Assembly: GCA_944324185.1 (NCBI GenBank)
Contig: CALUVI010000002.1
Location: 1-64,000 of the forward strand
Source of the DNA: Candidatus Gastranaerophilales bacterium
GTDB taxonomy: Bacteria; Cyanobacteriota; Vampirovibrionia; Gastranaerophilales; Gastranaerophilaceae
Length of the DNA: 64,000 bases
Direction of reading: 5' to 3'
The translations under genes were made by a program, and so were the position numbers. Below the pieces are notes generated by a model, which saw only the letters and a list, made by a program, of their open reading frames with translations, was not told the origin of the DNA and did no database searches. Shown piece after piece: positions 9,130-51,560 of the stretch. Every line of letters starts with the position of its first letter. Positions within the stretch are counted from its first letter, which is position 1.

Positions 9130-9156
9130 TAAAGTTTAAAAAAAAAATGCCGTTAT
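9130..9156 (+). promoter_or_regulatory. Sigma-28 (FliA)-type promoter
   Basis: TAAAGTTT (9130-9137), an 11-nt spacer (ten A and one T) and GCCGTTAT (9149-9156). The flagellar sigma-28 consensus is TAAAGTTT-N11-GCCGATAA, so this matches 14 of 16 positions with exact spacing. Transcription would begin near 9164, about 46 nt before the ATG of the 1033-aa protein. A near-identical copy is at 47567-47593 on the minus strand. Confidence 0.75.
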
Positions 9157-9209: not shown

Positions 9210-12200
9210 ATGAGCCTGGGTATTAATCCAAATGATGCGTTAGAACAAGCAAAAGCAAGGCAGGAAGCTGCTCAAAGAGCTAAAGAAAAAGCTGAAGCCG
9301 CAAAAAATGCAGCAGCTGCTAAAGATGCAGAGGCTGCGGCTGCAGCGGAAAAAGAAGCCGCCGAAGCCGATGCGGCAGCAGTAAACGCTGAAAAAGAGGC
9401 TGCTGATGTTACAGTTGCGCAGGAAAAGGTAAATGCTGCCAATGTTCGTGTTAACACTGCCCAATCTGCATATACAAACGCTTGTTCACAATTAAGCTCT
9501 GCACAGAATCAATTGTCAGCCGCAAAGGCGAGCGGAGATGAAAATGCAATAGCTGCGGCAGAATCAGCAGTAGCAAATGCCCAATCGGCTGCAGACAGAG
9601 CTTATGCAGAATTACAGGCTGCACAACAGGAAGCAAATAATGCTCAAGCCGAATTGGAAAGAGAAACCCGGGAAGCAACTGATGCTCAGGCAAAAGCTGA
9701 AACGGAACGCGCTGAGGCAGAACAGGCACAACAAGCTTCAGAAACTGCAAAGACTGAACTTGCGGACGCTGAGACTGCTTTAACTGCTGCCAATCAGGAA
9801 CTTGAAGCTGCTAATGCCGCTTTACAGGAAGCTGAAGAAGCAGCTGCCGCTGCAGAGACTGAAGAGACATCTGAAACTGACGAAACTCAAGAAACTGATG
9901 AAACAGAAGGGGTGCAGGAATCAGAGCATCTGTCTCAGGAAGAAATTGACAGATTGGTTCAGGAAGAAGGATATACTTATATTACTTCTAAGGAACAATT
10001 CCTGGAAATCTTCCAGAATGGAGGAATTGACTTAAACGGTAACTATATTTTAGGATGTGATATCGATTTAAGTGATGTTGAAAACTGGGATCCTGTTGGT
10101 GATGAGGATAATCCATTCACAGGTGTATTTAACGGAAACGGATATTCAATCGACAATTTGACAATAACTGTTGATGATGCAAATGCTGAAAATGTCGGTT
10201 TCTTCGGTGTAACTGAAAATGCGACAATTACAAATGTTGATTTTACTAATGCATCTGTTATAACTCCTGATGATTTTATTAACGGTTCATCTGCAGTAGG
10301 TATTGTTGCTGGTACCGCTAGAGGTACCACTTTCGATAACATTACTGTATCAGGTGACGTTACCGGTTATGAAAGTGTCGGCGGTTTAGTTGGCGTTATT
10401 AATGATAATTCTTATTTTGATGAGAATGGTAATAAAGTAGAAGTCGGCAATAGTTCAATATCAAATGTTCATACCGCAGTAAACGCTAATGGTAAATACT
10501 TTGTCGGCGGCTTAGCAGGATATGTTGCTGATACATCTACTAATGAAGGTGTAGCAACAAGAGATTTGAAAATTTCCAATTGCAGCACAAGCGGTGAAAT
10601 TGTATTTGAAGAGGAAGCTGCAGGCGGTTTAATCGGTGAAGCTGGTAAGACAATTATTACTATTACAAATTGCGAAAGTAATGTAAATATAACCTGGGAT
10701 AATGCTGAAAACGACGGCGATTTATCATTCCTTATGGAAACAGGAAGAGCCGGCGGATTCATAGGATGTGCAAACGGTACTTATATAGCAATTTGTAACT
10801 CTGAATACAAAGGTAATCTGGATGTTGACGGCGATTTTAAAGGCGAATGGTACGGATGGTACATGAATGATGCTCACGTTACTATTTATGAACTTCCGGG
10901 CGGATTACCTGTTGATGATATTTTGAATATTGACGGTATTGATGCACTGACTCCGGTAACGGATCCGCAAACAGGTATTTCTCATTATGAAGTAACCGTA
11001 AGTACTCTAACGGGCTTAGATAAAATGGTTACTATGATTCAGGAAAACCCTGCACTTGCAGATATGATAACCTTCAATGTAAACTTCGACTTTGAAGCAA
11101 TGGATGGTATGTATGATCCGTCAATTTATGAACAATACGGTATTGTACAGCATTTATATGAAGATGAAGAAGGAAATGTCCATAACGATGTTTATATTGA
11201 TAATGAAATAGATCTTGAAACAACCTTCCATCAAGGTGAAATGAGTGAATTACCGCCTTGTGAAGTCCAACAGTGTGATGGAATAATTCTTGAAGAAACA
11301 ATGGTTTCAGGCTTGTACAAAGATCCTGATGGTAATTATGTTGTTATAACTGATGAAGGACTTAAAAATGTTGATATGGAATTCCATTATGACAACCAGA
11401 TTACTGATGTTACAAAACGTTTGGAATCCGATGAAGTAAGATATCGTGAATATATTACCTCAATGGTTCAGTATTATCAGAATAAAATGTATGATGCACT
11501 GAAAGCCTTGTTTAATATTGGTGAAGACGAACAATTACCGGTAATAAATAAAGCTGAATACAAGAAACTGCAGAAGATGCAGGAAGCAGGCATGGAATTG
11601 ACCGATGAACAGAAACTTGCGATGGCTGTTTATGAAGTTGATTATACAGTAATGAATATGGTTTCTGATACAACTCACAACTATGGCTGCGGTATGGGCG
11701 GAAATGCTTCATTCCTTGATGAATCAAAAGCTATTCAAATGTACGATGATGCAGGCAGACCACTGTTTACAACTTTAAATGGCGATCAACTCCGTCAGAG
11801 AATGGATGCTGAAGGTAATCTTATGACAGATGATGAAGGTAATCCGATCTATGAAAACCTTGATGGCAGTGATTATACGGGACTGGCAGAAGTGTTTGCA
11901 CAACGCGGTTATCCTGTAACAGATGAAAACGGAAACTTCCTGTTCACTGATAAAGACGGTAATACTGTTACAAAATCAGTTGATGAAGAAGGAAACACTG
12001 TTTATACAAATGCTGACGGTTCTGTATTTGAAGGAACGGAAGAAGATTTAAAACAGCAGTTGACACCTTATGATAATTCTTCTGAATATTCAGATCTTGA
12101 AAACGATATGAAAGACTTGTTAAGCGATGTCGAAAACGGTAATTATCCGCTTGGCAGAACTTCAACACCAAATGAAGAAGGAACCGGCTCTGCAGCTGAT

Positions 12201-12311
12201 GGTGAACAGACAGAAACTCCGGCTGAAGGCGCTGCGGCAGCACCTCAAGGAGCACCGGCTGCAGAAGCTGAAACTCCAACCCCGGAAGAAATAGAAGACG
12301 AAATCTTATAA
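9210..12311 (+). CDS. Large Sec-less coiled-coil / GLUG-repeat protein
   Basis: 1033 residues starting at the ATG that follows CGAAAGGAG. Residues about 9-215 are an extremely Ala/Glu-rich coiled coil, followed by a Thr/Glu linker (216-234). From about 255 to 580 there is a beta-helix-like region with several GLUG-type motifs (GGLVG, GGLAG, GGLIG, GGFIG) and an opening (NGNYILGCDIDLS ... FTGVFNGNGYSI) known from surface adhesins. Later there are Asp/Asn-Gly loops (DENGNFLFTDKDGN) and an acidic Pro-rich C-terminus. No Sec signal, lipobox or membrane segment is present, although GLUG proteins are normally extracellular. The sigma-28-type promoter and the nearby flagellar export genes suggest export through the flagellar type III route. 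This is inference. Confidence 0.7.
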   Translation: MSLGINPNDALEQAKARQEAAQRAKEKAEAAKNAAAAKDAEAAAAAEKEAAEADAAAVNAEKEAADVTVAQEKVNAANVRVNTAQSAYTNACSQLSSAQNQLSAAKASGDENAIAAAESAVANAQSAADRAYAELQAAQQEANNAQAELERETREATDAQAKAETERAEAEQAQQASETAKTELADAETALTAANQELEAANAALQEAEEAAAAAETEETSETDETQETDETEGVQESEHLSQEEIDRLVQEEGYTYITSKEQFLEIFQNGGIDLNGNYILGCDIDLSDVENWDPVGDEDNPFTGVFNGNGYSIDNLTITVDDANAENVGFFGVTENATITNVDFTNASVITPDDFINGSSAVGIVAGTARGTTFDNITVSGDVTGYESVGGLVGVINDNSYFDENGNKVEVGNSSISNVHTAVNANGKYFVGGLAGYVADTSTNEGVATRDLKISNCSTSGEIVFEEEAAGGLIGEAGKTIITITNCESNVNITWDNAENDGDLSFLMETGRAGGFIGCANGTYIAICNSEYKGNLDVDGDFKGEWYGWYMNDAHVTIYELPGGLPVDDILNIDGIDALTPVTDPQTGISHYEVTVSTLTGLDKMVTMIQENPALADMITFNVNFDFEAMDGMYDPSIYEQYGIVQHLYEDEEGNVHNDVYIDNEIDLETTFHQGEMSELPPCEVQQCDGIILEETMVSGLYKDPDGNYVVITDEGLKNVDMEFHYDNQITDVTKRLESDEVRYREYITSMVQYYQNKMYDALKALFNIGEDEQLPVINKAEYKKLQKMQEAGMELTDEQKLAMAVYEVDYTVMNMVSDTTHNYGCGMGGNASFLDESKAIQMYDDAGRPLFTTLNGDQLRQRMDAEGNLMTDDEGNPIYENLDGSDYTGLAEVFAQRGYPVTDENGNFLFTDKDGNTVTKSVDEEGNTVYTNADGSVFEGTEEDLKQQLTPYDNSSEYSDLENDMKDLLSDVENGNYPLGRTSTPNEEGTGSAADGEQTETPAEGAAAAPQGAPAAEAETPTPEEIEDEIL

Positions 12312-32691: not shown

Positions 32692-35600
32692 CTAATTTAA
32701 TCTTTGCAGCAGTCCGAGAACACTTTCCGTTTTTAGGTTTCGTGAAGTTGACATCAAAGTTGCAGAAGCTTCCTGCAGAATCCGATATTTAATAAAATTC
32801 GACGATTCCTCAGCAACATCGGTATCTCTCAGAGTCGAACGCGTTGAAATCAGATTATTAATCTTTAAGATTTGCGCCTCAAGCACGCTGTCTAACCTGT
32901 TTATCGTTGTCCCGATATTCAAAAGCTGGTCTTGAACATCATTAAGCAGTTTATCAATATCTTCCAAACTCTCCAATGCGCCTTCTTGTGAAGAAAAGTC
33001 CACACTAAAATCAAACAAATTGAAACTAATTTCCGTTGAAATAAATTTATCTACGCCGGAGCCTATATCAACCTTAATATTAACTTCAAACGGTCTCGGG
33101 GTAATGTCTACGACGTTACTGTAAATTGTATTCACACCGTTATTTATCATTGTGTTGCGTTCGCCCGCTTCGCCGTCAACGGTGTTATTGTTACCTGAAG
33201 AGATCATAAACGCATCGCTTGAACCTCCGCCGTTTGCAGTGTTGTTATCTCCGTTAATGCTGATATCATCAATATCGGAGCCGCCCTGAATCGTATTACC
33301 ATCTCCGCGAATGGTAAACTCGTTTTCTCCGGCAGTTGATTCTATGTTGTTTCCGTCTCCGCGGACGTCGAATTCATCATCTCCCGAGCCGGTCAAAAGT
33401 TCGTTATTATCTCCTTTTACTGTAATATCCTTGTCTCCGAGGGTTGTCGTGTAATTGTTTCTGTTGCCTTCAATTACAACATCATTTTCCCCGCGGGTGT
33501 TTGTTAATGTGTTTTCGTTTCCGTAAATATTAATTGTGCCCGAAGCGTTTTGGGCGGTTAAATTGTTGTTATTGCCTTGAATCCCGATAATATTAGCGCC
33601 GCTTCCTGCTGTAATTGTGTTTGAAGAAGAGCTTACGACAAAGCGGTTGGCTCCATCACCCGCGTTAACTGTATTTGAGTCGGCATTGATTGTAATTGTG
33701 TTGTTTCCGTCGCCTGCGGTAATGTTGTTCTGCGCGCCTTCTACTACGATTTTGTTATTCCCCGCGCCGGCGTCGATGTTCGTATTATTATCAGAGTTCA
33801 CGTTAATCGTGTCGCCGCCGGCGCCACCTGTTACAGCTAGATTTGTGGATTCATTAAGAGTTATTGTATCGTCTCCGTCATCGCCGTTTAAAGAGTTGTC
33901 GGCACTGTCCATTATTAAAGTGTCATTGCCGGAAAGTCCGTTAATTATGTTATTTGAGCCCTGTTCGATTGTTATGCGGTCGGCGAGATTACTGCCGTTC
34001 ACAACATTGTTATCGCCGCGGATATTGAGAATTGCGTTTTCGTTTGAAGCGGCATTTATCTCAAAGTTTGAGCCGTTGAGGGTAATAACTCCTGTATTAG
34101 GATTCAAAGAATACTGGAGCATGTTTGAACCCGAGAGGTTGTTAGTAACGGTGTAGGTTTTGCCGTTCAGGGTAAAGGTTTGGGTTTCTCCCTGATATGT
34201 AAAAGAGATTCCGCCGGCGTTCGGGTCGCGGCTTACGTTGGATACAGAGCTTCCGGAGCCGTTTATGATGTAGTAGTTATCTCCGGTTCCGCCATCTATC
34301 ATGTTGTTGTCGCCGTCTACAACAAAATAATCATCACCCCCGCCGCCAAGGATAGTGTTATTACTGCCGGTGGCGTAAAATGTGTCATTGCCGGAGCCGC
34401 CGGAGATGCTGGCACCATCAGTATTAATATTGTAGATATTATCCCCGCCGTCGTCAGAAAGATTCGTGACTGATGCATTTATATTGTAGGTATCGTTGCC
34501 TAAACCACCGTTAATTACCCCACTTGATGTTGCATTTACTGTAATTATATCAGCGCCATCATCGCCATACACACTACCATTTGCATTAATAATAATTTCA
34601 TCGTCACCATCACCGCCATAACCAATAGAAGCCGTATTAACCAATGTTATTTTGTCATTTCCGCCTTGACCATAAATCTTAGCGCCATATCCATAGCACC
34701 AAATATTGTCCTCAAGATTACCGCCATAAAAAGTAGTACTCGTTCCATAAACTTTAACATTATGTTTTACATCAGTCTGCCCTGTGATAGCTGCATAATA
34801 ACCTGCAAATGTAATTTCATCTGTTACTGCGTTATATGAATATAGCATTTTTGAATTACGTAAAGTATCTGTGCTCTTAACTGTATAACTAATTCCATTA
34901 ATAGTATCATTTGATTCTAGAACCTGTGCATTATCAGAATCACCAAAACCGCAGATAAAATTATCTTTGCCGGAATTTGATAGAATTTTATTTGTACCGG
35001 ATTTTGCATAGACACTATTTTGAGAACCAGATATAGTTACATTAGTTTGTCCGGTTCCTGCTTCTGCATAACTATAGCTTCCTGTAAAAGTAATATTATC
35101 GACCCCGCTCCCTCCATAATAGAAACTAAAGTTTCCTATGTTAATTTCGTTGTCTCCGGCACCGCCATAACATATTCCTTGCGACTGTAAAGTTACCTTA
35201 TTGCTGCCATTTCCACAATAAACAATATTGTTATAAGTTTTAGCTAATATTGTGTCACCTTGATTGCCTCCATAAAAAGTTATATTGTTGGAGGCAAGTG
35301 CTACATTATGTTTTTTATCTAATGCACCTTTTATAGCAATTTCAGCACCATTTGAAGTTGTAAATATTATTTGACCGGTATCATCTATTTTATAAATTAA
35401 AGTTTGTGCACTATTACCATTGGTAACAATATAATCAATCCCGTTAATATTTAATGTTTTTGTTTCATTTTTTACAAAATCTACAGAACCGGCATTAGCT
35501 TTATCCACATTTACAAGAGTCATTGAAGAGTCAATATTACCATTAATAATATTTGTACCGGAATTTCCATTTATATCTAAGTTTTTTAAATTTTCTTTTA

Positions 35601-36783
35601 AATAGAAGGTGTCATCACCATCACCACCTTTTATCTTTGCATTAGAAGAAAAATTTATATTAAAAATATCATTTCCATTACCGCCATCTACTGTCTGTCC
35701 ATAGACATTCACATTAAGAACATCATCGCCATCTCCGCCATATATTGAATTAATTCCACTACCTTGTAACGTTAAAATATCATTACCAGCTTCACCATAA
35801 CCAAATGAATGATCTCCGTTTATTGTAATTTTATCATTACCATCACCGCCATACAAATAATTGAATGGTCCTGACATTTCTGTTAAAATATCGTCCTTAG
35901 AGCCGCCATAAAAAGATGTATAAGTTCCATTTATAACAATATTGTGCGCAACATCATCCTGACCTCTAATCTCAAAGTTTGAGGCTAATAGAGTTAATTC
36001 TCCCGTTAATGTATCTTTAGAATAAGATAAGTCGTTTGCTGTAGTTAGCTTATTTCTAACAGTATACTGAACTCCATCAATTGTGATGGTTTTAGTCTCA
36101 TTGGCTCCAAAGGATTCAGCACCCTCGATGTCTGCTGCCTGTGGAGACGGGGTGTTGTTTGATTGTGTGGTTGAGATTTGACTTGTGGTTGAAGGCGCCG
36201 CAGGCGCCTTACCTGCGGTCAAAGAAAAAGCCGATGCGGAGGCAGTCGTTTTACCCACGCCGGCAGGATATATATCATATGTTGTATTATTTACTTTTGC
36301 TGCTTTTGTAAGACGATTTATAGCTTTTGTTGATATTGAAGCCGCTCCAGTGTTTTTATCTGCCGGCTTTGAATACAAATTTAAACCGTTATACTCCATC
36401 GTCTCACGGAGCTGAGCAATCTGTTCGATTATTTCATCCGCTTCTGATTGCATGGCATCACGTGATTCAGCGCCATAATTGCCGTTAGATGCCTGAGTTG
36501 CAAGCGCTCTCAATCTTTGCAATAATTCTTCTATCTCCTCAAGACCGCCCTGCGCTGTCTGCAGTAAAGCCAGCCCGTCGCCGGCATTTTGTTGTACCTG
36601 CAGCATTGAAGAGATTTCTTTGTTTAAGTCAGTTATTATGGAATAATTCGCAGCGTTATCTTTTGCGTGGTTGACTTTAAATCCCGTTGTCATCCGCTCT
36701 ATGGAGCTATTTAAGCCGATAGTGTTATCATAAAGTGTACGCTGGAGGATTAAATCCGCAACATCAGTTCCGAAGGTAATCAT
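32692..36783 (-). CDS. Giant modular flagellin-like protein with beta-roll arrays
   Basis: 1363 residues. The ends are flagellin: residues 1-140 (SSIERMTTGFKVNHAKDNAA, LLQTAQGGLEEIEELLQRL) and 1265-1363 (INRLDSVLEAQI, RSTLRDTDVAEESSNF, SVLGLLQRL) form D0/D1. In place of D2/D3 it carries four units, each a roughly 65-residue header (228-293, 438-503, 624-687, 866-930; e.g. INGIDYIVTNG ... FYGGN) followed by a beta-roll array with GGxGxD or GDxNxI repeats (to 430, 620, 848 and 1225). It should form the filament or a minor, very thick filament; the Asp/Asn-rich loops suggest calcium binding. An AAAGGAGGTGGC ribosome site precedes the ATG. No sigma-28 promoter was found within 1 kb, where a repeat mosaic lies instead. 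Confidence 0.85.
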   Translation of the reverse strand: MITFGTDVADLILQRTLYDNTIGLNSSIERMTTGFKVNHAKDNAANYSIITDLNKEISSMLQVQQNAGDGLALLQTAQGGLEEIEELLQRLRALATQASNGNYGAESRDAMQSEADEIIEQIAQLRETMEYNGLNLYSKPADKNTGAASISTKAINRLTKAAKVNNTTYDIYPAGVGKTTASASAFSLTAGKAPAAPSTTSQISTTQSNNTPSPQAADIEGAESFGANETKTITIDGVQYTVRNKLTTANDLSYSKDTLTGELTLLASNFEIRGQDDVAHNIVINGTYTSFYGGSKDDILTEMSGPFNYLYGGDGNDKITINGDHSFGYGEAGNDILTLQGSGINSIYGGDGDDVLNVNVYGQTVDGGNGNDIFNINFSSNAKIKGGDGDDTFYLKENLKNLDINGNSGTNIINGNIDSSMTLVNVDKANAGSVDFVKNETKTLNINGIDYIVTNGNSAQTLIYKIDDTGQIIFTTSNGAEIAIKGALDKKHNVALASNNITFYGGNQGDTILAKTYNNIVYCGNGSNKVTLQSQGICYGGAGDNEINIGNFSFYYGGSGVDNITFTGSYSYAEAGTGQTNVTISGSQNSVYAKSGTNKILSNSGKDNFICGFGDSDNAQVLESNDTINGISYTVKSTDTLRNSKMLYSYNAVTDEITFAGYYAAITGQTDVKHNVKVYGTSTTFYGGNLEDNIWCYGYGAKIYGQGGNDKITLVNTASIGYGGDGDDEIIINANGSVYGDDGADIITVNATSSGVINGGLGNDTYNINASVTNLSDDGGDNIYNINTDGASISGGSGNDTFYATGSNNTILGGGGDDYFVVDGDNNMIDGGTGDNYYIINGSGSSVSNVSRDPNAGGISFTYQGETQTFTLNGKTYTVTNNLSGSNMLQYSLNPNTGVITLNGSNFEINAASNENAILNIRGDNNVVNGSNLADRITIEQGSNNIINGLSGNDTLIMDSADNSLNGDDGDDTITLNESTNLAVTGGAGGDTINVNSDNNTNIDAGAGNNKIVVEGAQNNITAGDGNNTITINADSNTVNAGDGANRFVVSSSSNTITAGSGANIIGIQGNNNNLTAQNASGTINIYGNENTLTNTRGENDVVIEGNRNNYTTTLGDKDITVKGDNNELLTGSGDDEFDVRGDGNNIESTAGENEFTIRGDGNTIQGGSDIDDISINGDNNTANGGGSSDAFMISSGNNNTVDGEAGERNTMINNGVNTIYSNVVDITPRPFEVNIKVDIGSGVDKFISTEISFNLFDFSVDFSSQEGALESLEDIDKLLNDVQDQLLNIGTTINRLDSVLEAQILKINNLISTRSTLRDTDVAEESSNFIKYRILQEASATLMSTSRNLKTESVLGLLQRLN

Positions 36784-36810
36784 GCCACCTCCTTTGGGTT
36801 GTATCCCTCA

Positions 36811-36904
36811 CCTCTTGTGAGGAGAACGGATTTGCGGACGGATTGAGCCAACAGGAGCTTTGCTCCGTGGGCGAAACTCCGAGAGCGTGGAGCAAAGCCA
36901 AGAC
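36811..36904. repeat. Repeat module, copy 1
   Basis: It shares CTTGTGagGAgaaCGGATTTGCGGACGGA-type sequence, then ACAGGAGCT-TGCTCCG and GCGTGGAGCAAA, with copy 2 at 37131-37263. Copy 2 carries about 40 extra bases in the middle. The shared GGAGC..GCTCC segments can fold as hairpins. Confidence 0.6.
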
Positions 36905-36980
36905 GGGTAGAATTTCAAGTTGAGCCGGGGCGAAACTTAGAAATTCGGGTGAGGGGTCAAGTTCTTTGTTAGTTGGCAAG

Positions 36981-37001
36981 ATCCCGAAACAAGTTCGGGA
37001 T
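36981..37001. repeat. Dispersed palindrome ATCCCGAA-N5-TTCGGGAT
   Basis: A perfect 8-bp stem with a 5-nt loop, followed by GAC. This 'TCCCGAAACAAGTTCGGGATGAC' type is a widespread intergenic palindrome in bacterial genomes. Confidence 0.6.
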
Positions 37002-37035
37002 GACAGCATTTTGGAAGTGTCTGTTATCGGGTTTG

Positions 37036-37101
37036 AGAATGTTTTAGAGATTCTTCGCCCCTGAATTGCCATCGGGCTCTGAATGACTGCAATCCGGTTT
37101 A
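37036..37101. repeat. Inverted partial copy of the MITE-like element
   Basis: On the minus strand it reads GATTGCAGTCATTC, then GCAATTCAGGGGCGAAG and AATCTCTAAAA. This follows 27594-27646 (GATTGCAGTCATTCTGAA ... AGGGGTGAAGAATCTCT) with few differences. Only one terminal repeat is kept. Confidence 0.6.
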
Positions 37102-37130
37102 ACATTAATTGAGCGCGGCTGCCTCTGCCC

Positions 37131-37263
37131 CCCTTGTGGGGGAAGCGGATTTGCGGACGGACGACACGAACGTTAGTGAGGTAGTCCGGATAGCGAGCAA
37201 AACGAACGGACAGGAGCTCTGCTCCGAAAGTGAGATTTTGCGAGCGTGGAGCAAATCTAAGAC
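37131..37263. repeat. Repeat module, copy 2
   Basis: The second, longer copy of the module at 36811-36904; see that entry for the shared segments. The extra middle part contains GACACGAACGTTAGTGAGG. Confidence 0.6.
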
Positions 37264-37624
37264 AGTACCCGAAGGGGGTAGGGGGGTAGTGTTTGGAGTG
37301 ATGATTTTTCAGTCCCTCACCCGAATTTCTAAGCTCGCACGGCTCGCTAACAAATTCTTCCCTCTTCCCAAATGAGCGAGGGAAATGCGCTAATTGAATG
37401 ACACAAGCGCATGCCTTCCACGGATAAATACATCCTGCTTGTAGTATTACATACCAAACTAAAATATTTACCCCGGGAAGGTTAGGATGGGGATTAGTTT
37501 TGTCTGAACCCCACCCGCATTTGTAGCTCACTGGCGTTCGCACAACTGCGACCTCTCCAACCTGAGAGGTCGGCGCGATTATTGGGCATGGGGGAACGCC
37601 GGTTTTTAATTGCAAAATTCGTTC

Positions 37625-37665
37625 CGGATTGCTTCGGGATAAATGGACATTCCCTAGCAATGACG
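37625..37665. repeat. Inverted half copy of the REP-like repeat
   Basis: The reverse complement contains CGTCATTGCTAGGG and CCCGAAGCAATCCGG, corresponding to 27388-27427. The other half of the element is missing. Confidence 0.6.
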
Positions 37666-37752
37666 TGATTTTTAATTCCTTCTCAACTTCCAAACTACTA
37701 AACTTTTTAATTGTCTTAGAAGGTCTTAATCTAGCTCTGTGACTGGATTTTG

Positions 37753-37764
37753 CCCCCCCCCCCC
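37753..37764. repeat. Homopolymeric C12 tract
   Basis: Twelve consecutive C in otherwise mixed sequence. Such tracts slip during replication. It lies about 970 bp upstream of the flagellin start and in no supported gene, so any effect would be on transcription or spacing. Confidence 0.7.
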
Positions 37765-37942
37765 GAAGGGAAAGGCGGCTCATTGGTGTGCTTTGAACAC
37801 ATGAATATTCTAAAATTTTTCCTTTTAGAAATCCTTATCAACAACATGATATGACATATCCTTATATCCATTATATATTATATATTCCACATGTTCATAA
37901 GGTTATAACACTTTTTTTTATTAATTTTACAAATATTTACAT

Positions 37943-47294: not shown

Positions 47295-47328
47295 AAAAAC
47301 AAAAGCTTGCAACTATTAATTGCAAGCT
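47295..47328 (-). terminator. Intrinsic terminator of the 42-aa gene
   Basis: A 9-bp stem (AGCTTGCAA / TTGCAAGCT, 7-nt loop), followed on the minus strand by TTTTGTTTTT. It lies 42 bp after the stop codon at 47370 and isolates the small gene from the amidase downstream. Confidence 0.75.
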
Positions 47329-47369: not shown

Positions 47370-47498
47370 TTAACAATGTAATTTACTGTCAATTTCATAA
47401 ATTTTTAATACCAGAGAATTTAACCAATCTTTTAACATTAATGCCAAAATTTTTATTTCATCTCTGAAACTGTAACATCCGGGCCACATTGCGTACAT
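47370..47498 (-). CDS. 42-aa protein under a sigma-28-type promoter
   Basis: A short frame with full expression signals: a sigma-28-type promoter (47567-47593), the ribosome site CGAAAGGAG (identical to that of the 1033-aa gene) 8 nt before ATG, and a terminator (47295-47328). The product begins MYAMWPGCYSFRDEIKILAL and continues as one amphipathic helix (MLKDWLNSLVLKIYEI), ending SKLHC. It has no signal peptide. No family was recognised. Late flagellar genes of this size include anti-sigma factors and export chaperones, but 42 residues is shorter than FlgM; a small regulator or structural peptide is equally possible. Confidence 0.65.
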   Translation of the reverse strand: MYAMWPGCYSFRDEIKILALMLKDWLNSLVLKIYEIDSKLHC

Positions 47499-47566
47499 AT
47501 CAAATACTCCTTTCGATGTTCTTTTGATTTTCAGGAAGCATTTTATTACCCCTGCCTACAATTTGT

Positions 47567-47593
47567 ATAACGGCATTTTTTTTTAAAACTTTA
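47567..47593 (-). promoter_or_regulatory. Sigma-28 (FliA)-type promoter
   Basis: On the minus strand: TAAAGTTT, an 11-nt spacer (T, nine A, T) and GCCGTTAT. The -35 and -10 boxes are identical to those at 9130-9156, and the spacer is also an A-tract. Transcription would start near 47560, giving a leader of about 62 nt for the 42-aa gene. Confidence 0.75.
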
Positions 47594-47705: not shown

Positions 47706-49565
47706 ATGACAGTAAATGGAATTGGTACAACTGAATATAATCAAAATGTATCTGCAAATCAGTCTGCACGTACAACTGAGACTGCATATACAAATTCGGT
47801 TATGACTCAAGCTCAAGGCTCAGAGCCGGCTTCTTCTGCTGAAAATACTTCAAATACCCCATCTTCACAAGCTTCTGAATTAGACAAACAGCTTGAACAA
47901 TTATGTGCAAGGCTAAAAAAATATAATGTAACAGTAGAAGATATTAAGAAAAGCGGACTTATAGAAAAGATTTGCGGCGGAGCGACTTTGGAGCAGATAG
48001 CAAAAGTCCCTCAAGAAAAGCAGGAAAAATTATTTAAAGCTCTTGAGCAGGCAATTATTGATGCTTTTAGAGATAATAAAGTTGACTGGGAAAAAGCAGC
48101 AGATCTTGGTAAAGATTATCTTATTGCTTTAAATACAGGCTGGACTATAAAAGGTTTTAAAGTCTATAATAAAACTGTAAAACAATCTTCACTTCTTCAA
48201 AGACTTATAGAAACAAAATGTTTGCCCGAAGGTACAACTGTAGATAATGTCTCCATGGATGAATTAAAAGCTGCCGTGAAAAAATTCTGCGGCTATCTTG
48301 TCGACGAGATAAAGGCAAAACCGACTGAAAAAGATAAATTGGTACAACTGCAGACTTTTGGTCGATTATTAATAAATTCACCTGCTGAGGAAAAAGAATT
48401 ATTCCTGGAAGTTATTAAATCTTTATACGCTGAAAACAGAGGGAAAGCTTTGGATGCAGTGATAACAAGCAGTGAGAACAGAGAACAGAGAAGTCAACTT
48501 GCCAAGGCTGCAGCAGATCCGGAGTACATAAAAGCAATTACAACCGAGCCTATTCGCAACAGCGAAGGTGAAATTGTAAATTCTGATGTAATGAGTCAGG
48601 ATGATGCGACTGAAGTTGCACAAATAATATATAGAAATTTGTCGGAAGAAGATACCTCGTCAGCTCACGAAAATTATGATAATGCAAGAAGAGCATGGTT
48701 TGAACAAAATAAAGAAATTTTAACCTCAATAGAAGAAAAAGTTCGACAAGCAGAAGAAAATGGTGTTGAACCGGAATTTACCGAAGAAGAAAAACAGGTA
48801 TTATTAGAGCAGCAAAACTATATTATTGGTGTTTCTTCCGGTGAATTTATCGGTACAATTGAAAATCAGAATTTATCAGAAGATTTTAGAAATGAGCACT
48901 TAAAACTCTTAAACAGTGACAGCTATGAACTCCCTGTTTACAGAGATATTCTTGAACAGATTAACAACTATGCTGAAAACAATCCTGACAGTATTTCTAT
49001 CCCGAAGGAAGAGTTAATAAAAATTTTAGATAATGCTACAAATGGCAATTATACAACTGTATCAACCGGCAGTGATAAAGAATTAAATCCTCCTGTACAA
49101 CCGCAGGAAGAATCTTATGAAACTCCTGATCTAGGTTTTAAGCAGAGAGAAAGCGTTGATACAGAAAGATTAGCATTACTCAGACAGCAAATCGCGGATT
49201 CTACTGACAGACAAACAGGTTTTAAGGTAGAAAATCCGATAAAACAAAATAAAGCTGATGAATCTTTCAGTGCAAAAATGGCAGAAGCAAGCTCCGGTCA
49301 GGATAAATTAGCTGTTATTAAAGAATTCTTTGACCGCTCACCTATGTTAAAGAAGGCGCTTGAAAAATACTTGACCGGCGTGACGGATTCTCTTTATATC
49401 CTTAATGCATTGCCTACTAATGCAAGAAAATATCTTGCCCAGAGGCTTACACAAAAAGGCTTGCTTGATGAAAGCGATATTCAGAAATTGAACCTTTCAT
49501 TCAGCGAAAAACAATTACTTAATAACATATTGACAGAAAACGAAAAGAAAGCTGAAACAGTATAA
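47706..49565 (+). CDS. Large Sec-less helical protein, accessory family member 1
   Basis: 619 residues. The first 60 are Ser/Thr/Asn/Gln-rich and unstructured, like type III secretion signals, with no Sec signal. A helical core follows (about 60-160: LEQLCARLKKYNVTVEDIKK, GLIEKICGGATLEQIAKVP) that aligns with about residues 80-160 of the next gene (GLLEKVAGCKEEHFNRLP). The middle is charged; the C-terminus (DRSPMLKKALEKYLTGVTDSLYILNALPTNARKYLAQRL) is helical. It has an accessory-class promoter 13 bp upstream and faces the 42-aa gene. No named family was recognised; a flagellar-type export substrate is a reasonable hypothesis. Confidence 0.65.
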   Translation: MTVNGIGTTEYNQNVSANQSARTTETAYTNSVMTQAQGSEPASSAENTSNTPSSQASELDKQLEQLCARLKKYNVTVEDIKKSGLIEKICGGATLEQIAKVPQEKQEKLFKALEQAIIDAFRDNKVDWEKAADLGKDYLIALNTGWTIKGFKVYNKTVKQSSLLQRLIETKCLPEGTTVDNVSMDELKAAVKKFCGYLVDEIKAKPTEKDKLVQLQTFGRLLINSPAEEKELFLEVIKSLYAENRGKALDAVITSSENREQRSQLAKAAADPEYIKAITTEPIRNSEGEIVNSDVMSQDDATEVAQIIYRNLSEEDTSSAHENYDNARRAWFEQNKEILTSIEEKVRQAEENGVEPEFTEEEKQVLLEQQNYIIGVSSGEFIGTIENQNLSEDFRNEHLKLLNSDSYELPVYRDILEQINNYAENNPDSISIPKEELIKILDNATNGNYTTVSTGSDKELNPPVQPQEESYETPDLGFKQRESVDTERLALLRQQIADSTDRQTGFKVENPIKQNKADESFSAKMAEASSGQDKLAVIKEFFDRSPMLKKALEKYLTGVTDSLYILNALPTNARKYLAQRLTQKGLLDESDIQKLNLSFSEKQLLNNILTENEKKAETV

Positions 49566-49587
49566 TATAATATGAATTATTTATTTG

Positions 49588-49610
49588 CTAAACTCTGAGA
49601 GGAGTTTTGC
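49588..49610 (+). terminator. Probable terminator of the 619-aa gene
   Basis: AAACTC and GAGTTT pair around a 6-nt loop, with further GC pairing after one mismatch. TTTACATTTTTT follows. It is a modest stem, so confidence is limited. Confidence 0.4.
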
Positions 49611-49629
49611 TTTACATTTTTTAATAATT

Positions 49630-49664
49630 AGGCAATTTTAAAGAGGATAAATACTTTATATATA
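49630..49664 (+). promoter_or_regulatory. Accessory-class promoter AGGCAATT-N14-TACTTTATATATA
   Basis: Both boxes are identical to those at 9050-9084 and 53043-53077, with the same 14-nt gap. It ends 28 nt before the ATG at 49692, exactly the same distance as the copy at 53043 has to its gene. Confidence 0.65.
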
Positions 49665-49691
49665 TATTATTAATAAATCGAGAGTATAAAA

Positions 49692-51560
49692 ATGAGTTTT
49701 TTAACAGAAATAAAAAATTTCATAAAAACAGAAGTATTAGGTATTGAAGAATCCGGTACCGCAGTTGCTCCTGCAAAAAATAAAGAAACCAAACCGGTGA
49801 TTGAATGCAAAACAGACGCACCGGAGGATATATTTGAGAGGAAAACGGAAAAACAGGATACTGCAGTTCAAACCAATACAGTGAGCCGCAAAGCGATTGA
49901 AGAAACTATTGTAAATATACCAACTAAAATAGTTGACCTGAGAAAAATGATTAAGAATGGTTTGTTAGAAAAGGTTGCCGGATGTAAAGAAGAGCATTTT
50001 AACAGACTACCGGCTATTCAGAAGAGACTAGTTATTGATTCTATACAAATATCTGTAAAGAGATTTGAAGAATTATATGCTGCAGGGAAGATAAATAAAG
50101 ATGCAAATATAGAGTCACTTATACTTCGTAAAGCATCAGAAATGTATAGTGCTATTACAACCGGAACTTTTAATAATATTCAGGAGTATGAAGAAGCTGC
50201 AGGTGATATTAATAAAGATTTAGGCAAAGATTTTGATAAAAAGTCTAAAGAAGAGAGAAGAACAAAATTTAAAAGGCGTAAAGAAGAATATCAAAGACTT
50301 TTTAATGAAAAAATAGAGAAGGTTAAAAATTTACCTGAGCCACAAAGATCTATAGAATTATATAAGTTAATGAGACAGCACCGTTATATTATGCGGGCTC
50401 AGCATTTGGATGTTGCTGCCCAGAGAGAAACCGAAACTGCTGTTGATGCAACAATAATGCTTGATGCAGAGGATATAGAACAAGGGGCAGAAACGGTTAT
50501 AGAAACAAGAAACAGTGATAAAGAAAGAACAGAGGCTGCTGATTATGCAGATTATGAATTTACAAAAGAAGTTATTGCTGCTAATGCAGAAGCCGGAAAA
50601 GAGGTTAAAGCAGAAGACTTAGAAGGGTATACAGAAGCTTATATGGAATACAAATCACCAGATGCAGCTTATGAATACCAGTCTGCCTATACAGAAGACA
50701 GAAATATTTTTGAAGCGGCTCTAAGAAAGCAGCAGAACGGCGAAGCTTTAACTCCGGAAGAAGAGTTTCTGATAAACTACATGTCAGCTGAATATTATAC
50801 TGCAACTGCACGAGGAATCGGTCTGGGTGCTCTGAATAATATAAATATGAATGCGGCTGAAAAAGCTGAATTTCTCGCTGCTTGGGAGAATGATGCTAAG
50901 AAGTTTCGCGATTACGAAGTTGTAACGGCTAATGTGAAGAAAACTATCAGCGAAAATCCCGAGTACAAAGAAATAAAAGAAAATTTTGAAGAAATTCAGA
51001 CGATATACGGAGAAGCAGTACACGGGACTTCTGAAAAGAAACAAGAAGAAGTTTCTGGATTAATCAATTCAAATCCGGACATTTCTATATCGGATTATAC
51101 ACCGGTTTACACTGCACCTGCAATAGTAGAGGTTAAAACGAACCCGGCTGCCAATAAGCCGAATGATGCAGAAGAGGCAGAAAAACCGAGAAAGCAGCAA
51201 GAGACTGCAGTGCCTCAAGAAACAAAATCCAACCCGATTGAAATTGCGAAGAACATTAAAAAAGACGGAGTTGAGCAGGCAGTTAAAAAATACGGAAGCG
51301 ATGCAATCCGGATTATATTGGACTATTCCGGATTTAAACACCTCCGTCCGCAGTTAACTACAATCATCCGTTCATATAACCTGAATGAGTTAAAAGAAAT
51401 TACACAACACTGTTCTGACAGCGCATTTGTGTACATTTGCAGCATTGTAAATGAAGATTTTGTTGAACAGTTGAGGAAAAACAGAGAACGCACTAAAGGA
51501 TTATGCTATACTGCTGCTAATCAGATAAAACAATTGGAAGGCGAATATGCAGCTGTTTAA
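49692..51560 (+). CDS. Large Sec-less helical protein, accessory family member 2
   Basis: 622 residues. The N-terminus (MSFLTEIKNFIKTEVLGIEE, then a charged low-complexity stretch to about 75) has no Sec signal. Residues 80-165 match the core of the 619-aa neighbour (IVDLRKMIKNGLLEKVAG). The middle is highly charged and helical (ADYADYEFTKEVIAANAEAG). The C-terminal 110 residues form a separate helical domain (IRIILDYSGFKHLRPQLTTI, ITQHCSDSAFVYICSIVNED). The two proteins share promoter class, length and core and are probably diverged tandem duplicates. A follower gene overlaps its 3' end by 14 bp. The function is unknown. Confidence 0.65.
   Translation: MSFLTEIKNFIKTEVLGIEESGTAVAPAKNKETKPVIECKTDAPEDIFERKTEKQDTAVQTNTVSRKAIEETIVNIPTKIVDLRKMIKNGLLEKVAGCKEEHFNRLPAIQKRLVIDSIQISVKRFEELYAAGKINKDANIESLILRKASEMYSAITTGTFNNIQEYEEAAGDINKDLGKDFDKKSKEERRTKFKRRKEEYQRLFNEKIEKVKNLPEPQRSIELYKLMRQHRYIMRAQHLDVAAQRETETAVDATIMLDAEDIEQGAETVIETRNSDKERTEAADYADYEFTKEVIAANAEAGKEVKAEDLEGYTEAYMEYKSPDAAYEYQSAYTEDRNIFEAALRKQQNGEALTPEEEFLINYMSAEYYTATARGIGLGALNNINMNAAEKAEFLAAWENDAKKFRDYEVVTANVKKTISENPEYKEIKENFEEIQTIYGEAVHGTSEKKQEEVSGLINSNPDISISDYTPVYTAPAIVEVKTNPAANKPNDAEEAEKPRKQQETAVPQETKSNPIEIAKNIKKDGVEQAVKKYGSDAIRIILDYSGFKHLRPQLTTIIRSYNLNELKEITQHCSDSAFVYICSIVNEDFVEQLRKNRERTKGLCYTAANQIKQLEGEYAAV

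What the first reader, a model, noticed from the sequence alone, without database searches (positions are those of the whole stretch)
47370..47593. A second identical sigma-28 promoter marks an overlooked 42-aa gene
The -35 and -10 boxes and an A-tract spacer repeat those at 9130. Downstream are a CGAAAGGAG ribosome site, a 42-codon frame and a strong terminator. The complete expression unit is too short for ordinary gene calling. A tiny late-flagellar-class protein could be a regulator, chaperone or filament-associated peptide.
Basis: partly seen in the sequence, partly recalled or inferred. Interest (0 to 1): 0.7.

Follow-up and report, generated by a model that had tools for sequence, protein, structure and literature searches.

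The report
Conserved sigma-28-driven 42-residue protein gene
The 42-codon frame is a real gene for a new tiny helical protein, switched on by a flagellum-type promoter and kept across a whole order of gut bacteria (Gastranaerophilales), including many that have no flagellin gene, so it belongs to the sigma-28 regulon but not specifically to the flagellum.

Summary
The frame is a real gene. It is found in 52 of 57 congeneric genomes and, with a profile, in 94 of 240 genomes of the class. Nearly all are Gastranaerophilales. Among 43 distinct same-genus copies median dN/dS is 0.15. A sigma-28-type promoter lies 56-96 nt upstream in 108 of 114 orthologues. The protein is an N-terminal W-P-G-x-Y-S-F motif plus one amphipathic, coiled-coil-like helix. 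No Pfam, NCBIfam, PHROG or PDB family matches it.

The promoter class, the FliA/WhiG-type sigma factor and a second FlhA-type export gate all persist in non-flagellated genera, where the same promoter drives other conserved small proteins and large secreted-effector-like proteins. Best reading: a trans-acting helical partner in a sigma-28-controlled type III export programme. A FlgM-like anti-sigma role is the main rival, but profile comparison gave no support for homology to FlgM. Function is untested.

The parts
47568..47593 (-). sigma-28-type promoter TAAAGTTT-N11-GCCGTTA (-35 at 47593-47586, -10 at 47574-47568)
   Evidence: motif conserved upstream of 108 of 114 distinct orthologues
47507..47513 (-). 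Shine-Dalgarno AAAGGAG, 8 nt before the ATG
   Evidence: GGAG-type site also precedes the start in nearly all orthologues
47370..47498 (-). 42-codon gene MYAMWPGCYSFRDEIKILALMLKDWLNSLVLKIYEIDSKLHC
47304..47328 (-). intrinsic terminator hairpin followed by T-rich tail
   Evidence: terminator-like structure downstream in 96 of 113 orthologues
9130..9155 (+). second member of the same promoter class in the window, upstream of a 1033-aa coiled-coil protein (9210-12308)

Best explanation
Shown: a protein-coding gene with its own sigma-28-type (FliA-type) promoter and terminator, under purifying selection. It founds a previously unnamed family of 37-53 aa proteins in the order Gastranaerophilales. 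Predicted: the protein is a flexible N-terminus with a nearly invariant W-P-G-x-Y-S-F linear motif followed by one amphipathic, heptad-patterned helix. Inferred: it is a cytoplasmic, trans-acting binding partner (adaptor, chaperone or feedback regulator) that oligomerises or docks through the helix and presents the motif to a partner. It acts in the sigma-28-controlled type III export programme that Gastranaerophilales keep even after losing flagellin. It is not a filament component.
For: Real frame: 52 of 57 congeners match; codon-position variability 0.25/0.085/0.42, mean pS 0.70 against pN 0.165, median dN/dS 0.15, and the other five frames are broken by stops in nearly every copy. G is invariant and W, P, Y, S and F nearly invariant in 111 distinct sequences. 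Promoter in 108 of 114 loci against a 6% background. Not flagellum-bound: 94 genomes with the gene at E<1e-5, 67 of them without Flagellin_N. FliA/WhiG-type sigma over the curated cut-off in all f1 genera listed. A second FlhA-type gate is present in the non-flagellin genera. The 20 non-flagellin genomes tested carry 120 sigma-28-type sites against 2 in the reversed control, upstream of conserved small proteins and effector-like proteins that also occur in this genome's regulon. The gene moves between unrelated neighbourhoods but keeps its own promoter, as expected of a trans-acting product. AlphaFold2 gives one helix, residues 11-41, with pLDDT about 90 in its centre; mean a/d-position hydrophobicity is +1.0 in one heptad register.
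Against: No direct link to a secretion component: no shared operon, and no sigma-28 site was seen upstream of the second FlhA cluster. The gene is missing in genera that keep the sigma factor and the second FlhA gate (g35, g36, g51, g53) and in flagellated g46-g48 and g55, so it is not essential to either system. Only one export gene (FlhA) was surveyed across genomes, so a complete second secretion system is an inference. No expression data.
Confidence: 0.5

Rival explanations
1. It is a miniature anti-sigma-28 factor, a functional counterpart of FlgM: made from a sigma-28 promoter, it binds the sigma factor and limits its own regulon, and may be removed by export.
For: Made from a promoter of the sigma factor it would inhibit, as flgM is. 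No FlgM over cut-off in any Gastranaerophilales genome, while true FlgM occurs in other orders of the class that lack this gene. The motif G-x-Y-x-F followed by a helix recalls the FlgM core G-x-Y-x-V (own knowledge). Another family without flagellin (f12) keeps short FlgM-like proteins.
Against: Profile-profile comparison with FlgM of the class gave 0.5% probability, and no family member hits Pfam FlgM. The exclusion pattern could be a single phylogenetic event. Several genera have the sigma factor but neither protein.
Confidence: 0.25
2. It is itself a small exported substrate (needle, rod or pore-associated subunit) of the second type III apparatus, polymerising through its coiled-coil helix.
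For: Late-class promoter, heptad-patterned helix, unstructured N-terminus, presence with a second FlhA gate.
Against: About half the length of known needle subunits (own knowledge). Missing in genera that keep the gate. A structural subunit would be expected near the apparatus genes, and it is not.
Confidence: 0.17
3. It is a flagellum-specific chaperone, regulator or filament-associated peptide.
For: Sigma-28-type promoter; window and genome encode flagella.
Against: 67 of 94 carriers have no flagellin; 14 flagellated relatives lack it.
Confidence: 0.06
4. The transcript is a non-coding RNA or the frame is a chance ORF.
For: Short frame; no protein family match.
Against: Strong purifying selection on the frame and a nearly invariant peptide motif across families. 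No Rfam family in the window.
Confidence: 0.02

Closest known systems
FlgM (PF04316), anti-sigma-28 factor
   Same: Small, helical, made from a sigma-28 promoter, genome-position independent; loose G-x-Y-x-[FV] plus helix resemblance
   Different: Half the length, no profile similarity, nearly invariant W-P-G not seen in the FlgM sequences read here, occurs where FlgM is absent
Small flagellar or type III chaperones (FliT, FlgN, class I/II type III chaperones)
   Same: Small helical proteins of late export regulons
   Different: Those are 100-150 aa helical bundles (own knowledge); this is a single 31-residue helix with no sequence match
Type III secretion needle and rod subunits (SctF/SctI)
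   Same: Small, helical, produced late
   Different: About 80 aa helical hairpins encoded with the apparatus (own knowledge); no sequence match, not linked to apparatus genes
Sigma-28-dependent small RNAs of E. coli (PMC10578931)
   Same: Short sigma-28-driven units
   Different: Those are base-pairing RNAs; this unit is under protein-level selection

Membership tests
Sigma-28 (FliA-type) regulon | TAAAGTTT-N11-GCCGATAA-type promoter close upstream | tested here: met
   match here, 108 of 114 orthologues
Sigma-28 (FliA-type) regulon | Genome encodes a FliA/WhiG-class sigma factor | tested here: met
   best E 2e-68 here; the listed f1 genomes are over the TIGR02479 cut-off
Sigma-28 (FliA-type) regulon | Transcription depends on that sigma factor in the cell | not testable with these tools
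   needs RNA data or a sigma deletion
FlgM (PF04316) | Match to the FlgM profile | tested here: not met
   no member of A1 hits FlgM; hhalign probability 0.5%
FlgM (PF04316) | Binds and inhibits sigma-28 | not testable with these tools
   no complex prediction or assay available
Flagellar structural or flagellum-specific protein | Occurs only with flagellar filament genes | tested here: not met
   67 of 94 carriers lack flagellin
Known small-protein families (Pfam, NCBIfam, PHROGs, PDB sequences) | Significant profile match | tested here: not met
   only generic coiled-coil hits (PDB best E 0.015)
Component of a second type III export system | Genetic linkage to apparatus genes | tested here: not met
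   neighbours are unrelated and vary; the only link is the shared promoter class

The most novel reading that the evidence does not exclude
Gastranaerophilales replaced FlgM by a new, 42-residue single-helix anti-sigma or adaptor, and use a FliA-type sigma factor, freed from flagella, to run a second type III export system with a set of undescribed small proteins, of which this is one of the most conserved.
Probability: 0.2. Interest if true: 0.8.

Novelty: new variant of a known kind. Interest (0 to 1): 0.55.

Why it matters
It adds an undescribed microprotein family, conserved across an order of uncultured gut bacteria, and shows that a 'flagellar' sigma-28 regulon outlived the flagellum in many of them. 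That makes it testable what FliA-type sigma factors do in non-motile Gastranaerophilales, and whether these bacteria run a second type III export system that was previously described only as leftover flagellar genes.

Tried and rejected
FlgM homology: hhalign of a 111-sequence profile against FlgM of the class, and Pfam scan of 20 members, no support. Rfam: no RNA family anywhere in the window. A weak hit in g35/g36 genomes to about 690-aa frames (model positions 11-36) was a PilB/GspE-type ATPase, judged chance. FlgM-like weak hits in f1 to about 100-aa frames were an unrelated conserved protein. No relative confirmed in viral contigs. No Foldseek search, because a single helix gives meaningless matches. 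A first sigma-28 pattern with spacer 10-12 under-counted sites in g31/g33, whose spacer is 1 nt longer. Papers: none found that describe this family, a sigma-28 regulon or a second type III system in Gastranaerophilales.

Full report
WHAT IS THERE. The unit is on the minus strand. Reading 5' to 3': TAAAGTTT-TAAAAAAAAAT-GCCGTTA (47593-47568), CGAAAGGAG, an ATG at 47498, 42 codons, a TAA, and a hairpin AGCTTGCAATTAATAGTTGCAAGCT followed by a T-rich tail (47328-47304; -13.1 kcal/mol, z -4.2). The promoter pattern occurs twice in the window (9130 and here) against 0.01 expected, and 16 times in the 1.97-Mb genome against 1 for the reversed pattern. The two window sites differ by one base in the spacer.

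IT IS A REAL GENE. The protein was found in 52 of 57 other genomes of the genus; four of the five without it are MAGs of 69-80% completeness. Among 43 distinct full-length same-genus copies, variability is 0.25/0.085/0.42 by codon position, mean pS is 0.70 against pN 0.165, and median dN/dS is 0.15. The other five frames are interrupted in nearly every copy. Across 111 distinct sequences the W-P-G-x-Y-S-F block is nearly invariant (G in 111 of 111). The name of the group comes from genome records: most informatively named hits are 'Candidatus Gastranaerophilales' or 'Melainabacteria' MAGs, some from rumen and other gut samples.

DISTRIBUTION. A profile search of 240 genomes of the class found 94 at E<1e-5 (my count of the table), nearly all in family f1 (same as the window) plus f6; a wider profile added f7, and f3 (genus g11) was confirmed. 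Using the same 240 genomes for Flagellin_N, 27 of the 94 have flagellin and 67 do not; 14 f1 genomes have flagellin without the gene (genera g46, g47, g48, g55 and one g43). So the gene neither needs nor follows the flagellar filament. This contradicts the filament part of the first interpretation.

PROMOTER CLASS SURVIVES WITHOUT FLAGELLA. A sigma-28-type motif lies 56-96 nt upstream in 108 of 114 distinct orthologous loci (88 by a strict pattern; background of the loose pattern 6%), also in genera without flagellin, where the spacer is often one base longer. A FliA/WhiG-type sigma match was found in every genome of the class searched, with the listed f1 scores over the family cut-off. Twenty genomes of genera without flagellin carry 3-13 sites each, 120 in all, against 2 for the reversed pattern.

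THE REGULON. In this genome the 16 sites precede mostly undescribed proteins. Several small ones recur behind the same promoter in non-flagellin genera: an 89-90 aa family ending in NLNETR, a 40-60 aa family ending in ISKTDFE, a 51-53 aa family with LRGAKKRR, a 58-77 aa family with GEMTSFDFNS, and long proteins starting MGMAASQARLLxLTxR. The non-flagellin genera also keep a FlhA-type export gate distinct from flagellar FlhA: about 725 bits against about 865 for the flagellar copy; flagellated genomes, including this one (C40 and C2), typically have both. Its sequence falls below the curated cut-offs of both FlhA and SctV, and it sits next to a FliH-like gene. Published surveys describe non-flagellated members as holding only a subset of flagellar genes (PMC4040986; PMC3787301 for MEL.A1). 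That this is a complete second type III system is my inference: only FlhA was surveyed.

WHAT THE PROTEIN LOOKS LIKE. AlphaFold2 with a 54-sequence alignment gives a low-confidence, non-helical first ten residues and one helix, 11-41 (mean pLDDT 77.9, about 90 in the centre of the helix). The helix is amphipathic and fits one heptad register well (a/d mean hydrophobicity +1.0); PDB sequence hits are generic coiled coils. It has no significant Pfam, NCBIfam or PHROG match.

MECHANISM. Shown: coding, conserved, associated with a sigma-28-type promoter, position-independent (neighbours differ between genera: amidase and murI, clpB, rplU, dnaB and others, named from their sequences). Inferred: a trans-acting partner whose linear motif and helix bind another protein of the sigma-28-controlled export programme. 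A FlgM-like anti-sigma role is attractive because FlgM was not detected in Gastranaerophilales and is present in several other families of the class, but profile comparison gives no homology and some genera have the sigma factor with neither protein. I hold the gene and its promoter class at about 0.95, a role in the export programme at about 0.5, and an anti-sigma role at about 0.25.

LIMITS. Genomes are MAGs; absence can be assembly loss, though most were of high completeness. Genus and family labels are anonymous codes. Presence counts were made by hand from the tables. No transcript, peptide or interaction data were available.

Noticed in passing
32692-36783 (-): A 1363-aa flagellin: normal Flagellin_N and Flagellin_C ends with about 1000 residues of RTX-like/DUF3060-like repeats inserted between them.
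   Followed up: no
L174:3643-5733 (-) (genome contig C40): A second FlhA-type export gate next to a FliH-like gene; kept in nearly all Gastranaerophilales genomes searched, including those without flagellin. It is possibly a second, undescribed type III export system.
   Followed up: partly
L004, L005, L008, L009, L010 (genome contigs C7, C9, C14, C21): Further small or long protein families behind the same sigma-28-type promoter, shared between flagellated and non-flagellin genera; the five checked have no convincing family match.
   Followed up: partly
L191, L192, L196, L203, L208: Short FlgM-like proteins (52 to about 70 aa from the first Met) in family f12, which has no flagellin but has an FlhA-type gate: another sign of a sigma-28/FlgM circuit without flagella.
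   Followed up: no
9130-9155 and L002-L016: The promoter class has an extended consensus: A-rich stretch and CC just before TAAAGTTTT, and T at +8 and A at +11 after the -10 box, sometimes as TGTAAG.
   Followed up: partly
47706-51557 (+): Two undescribed proteins of 619 and 622 aa, transcribed divergently from the small gene; their homologues stay next to it in many congeners. Neither has a convincing family match.
   Followed up: no
36764-37783 (-): A 339-aa ORF in a stretch of 47-54% GC, higher than its flanks, whose translation looks non-coding; possibly an interspersed repeat.
   Followed up: no
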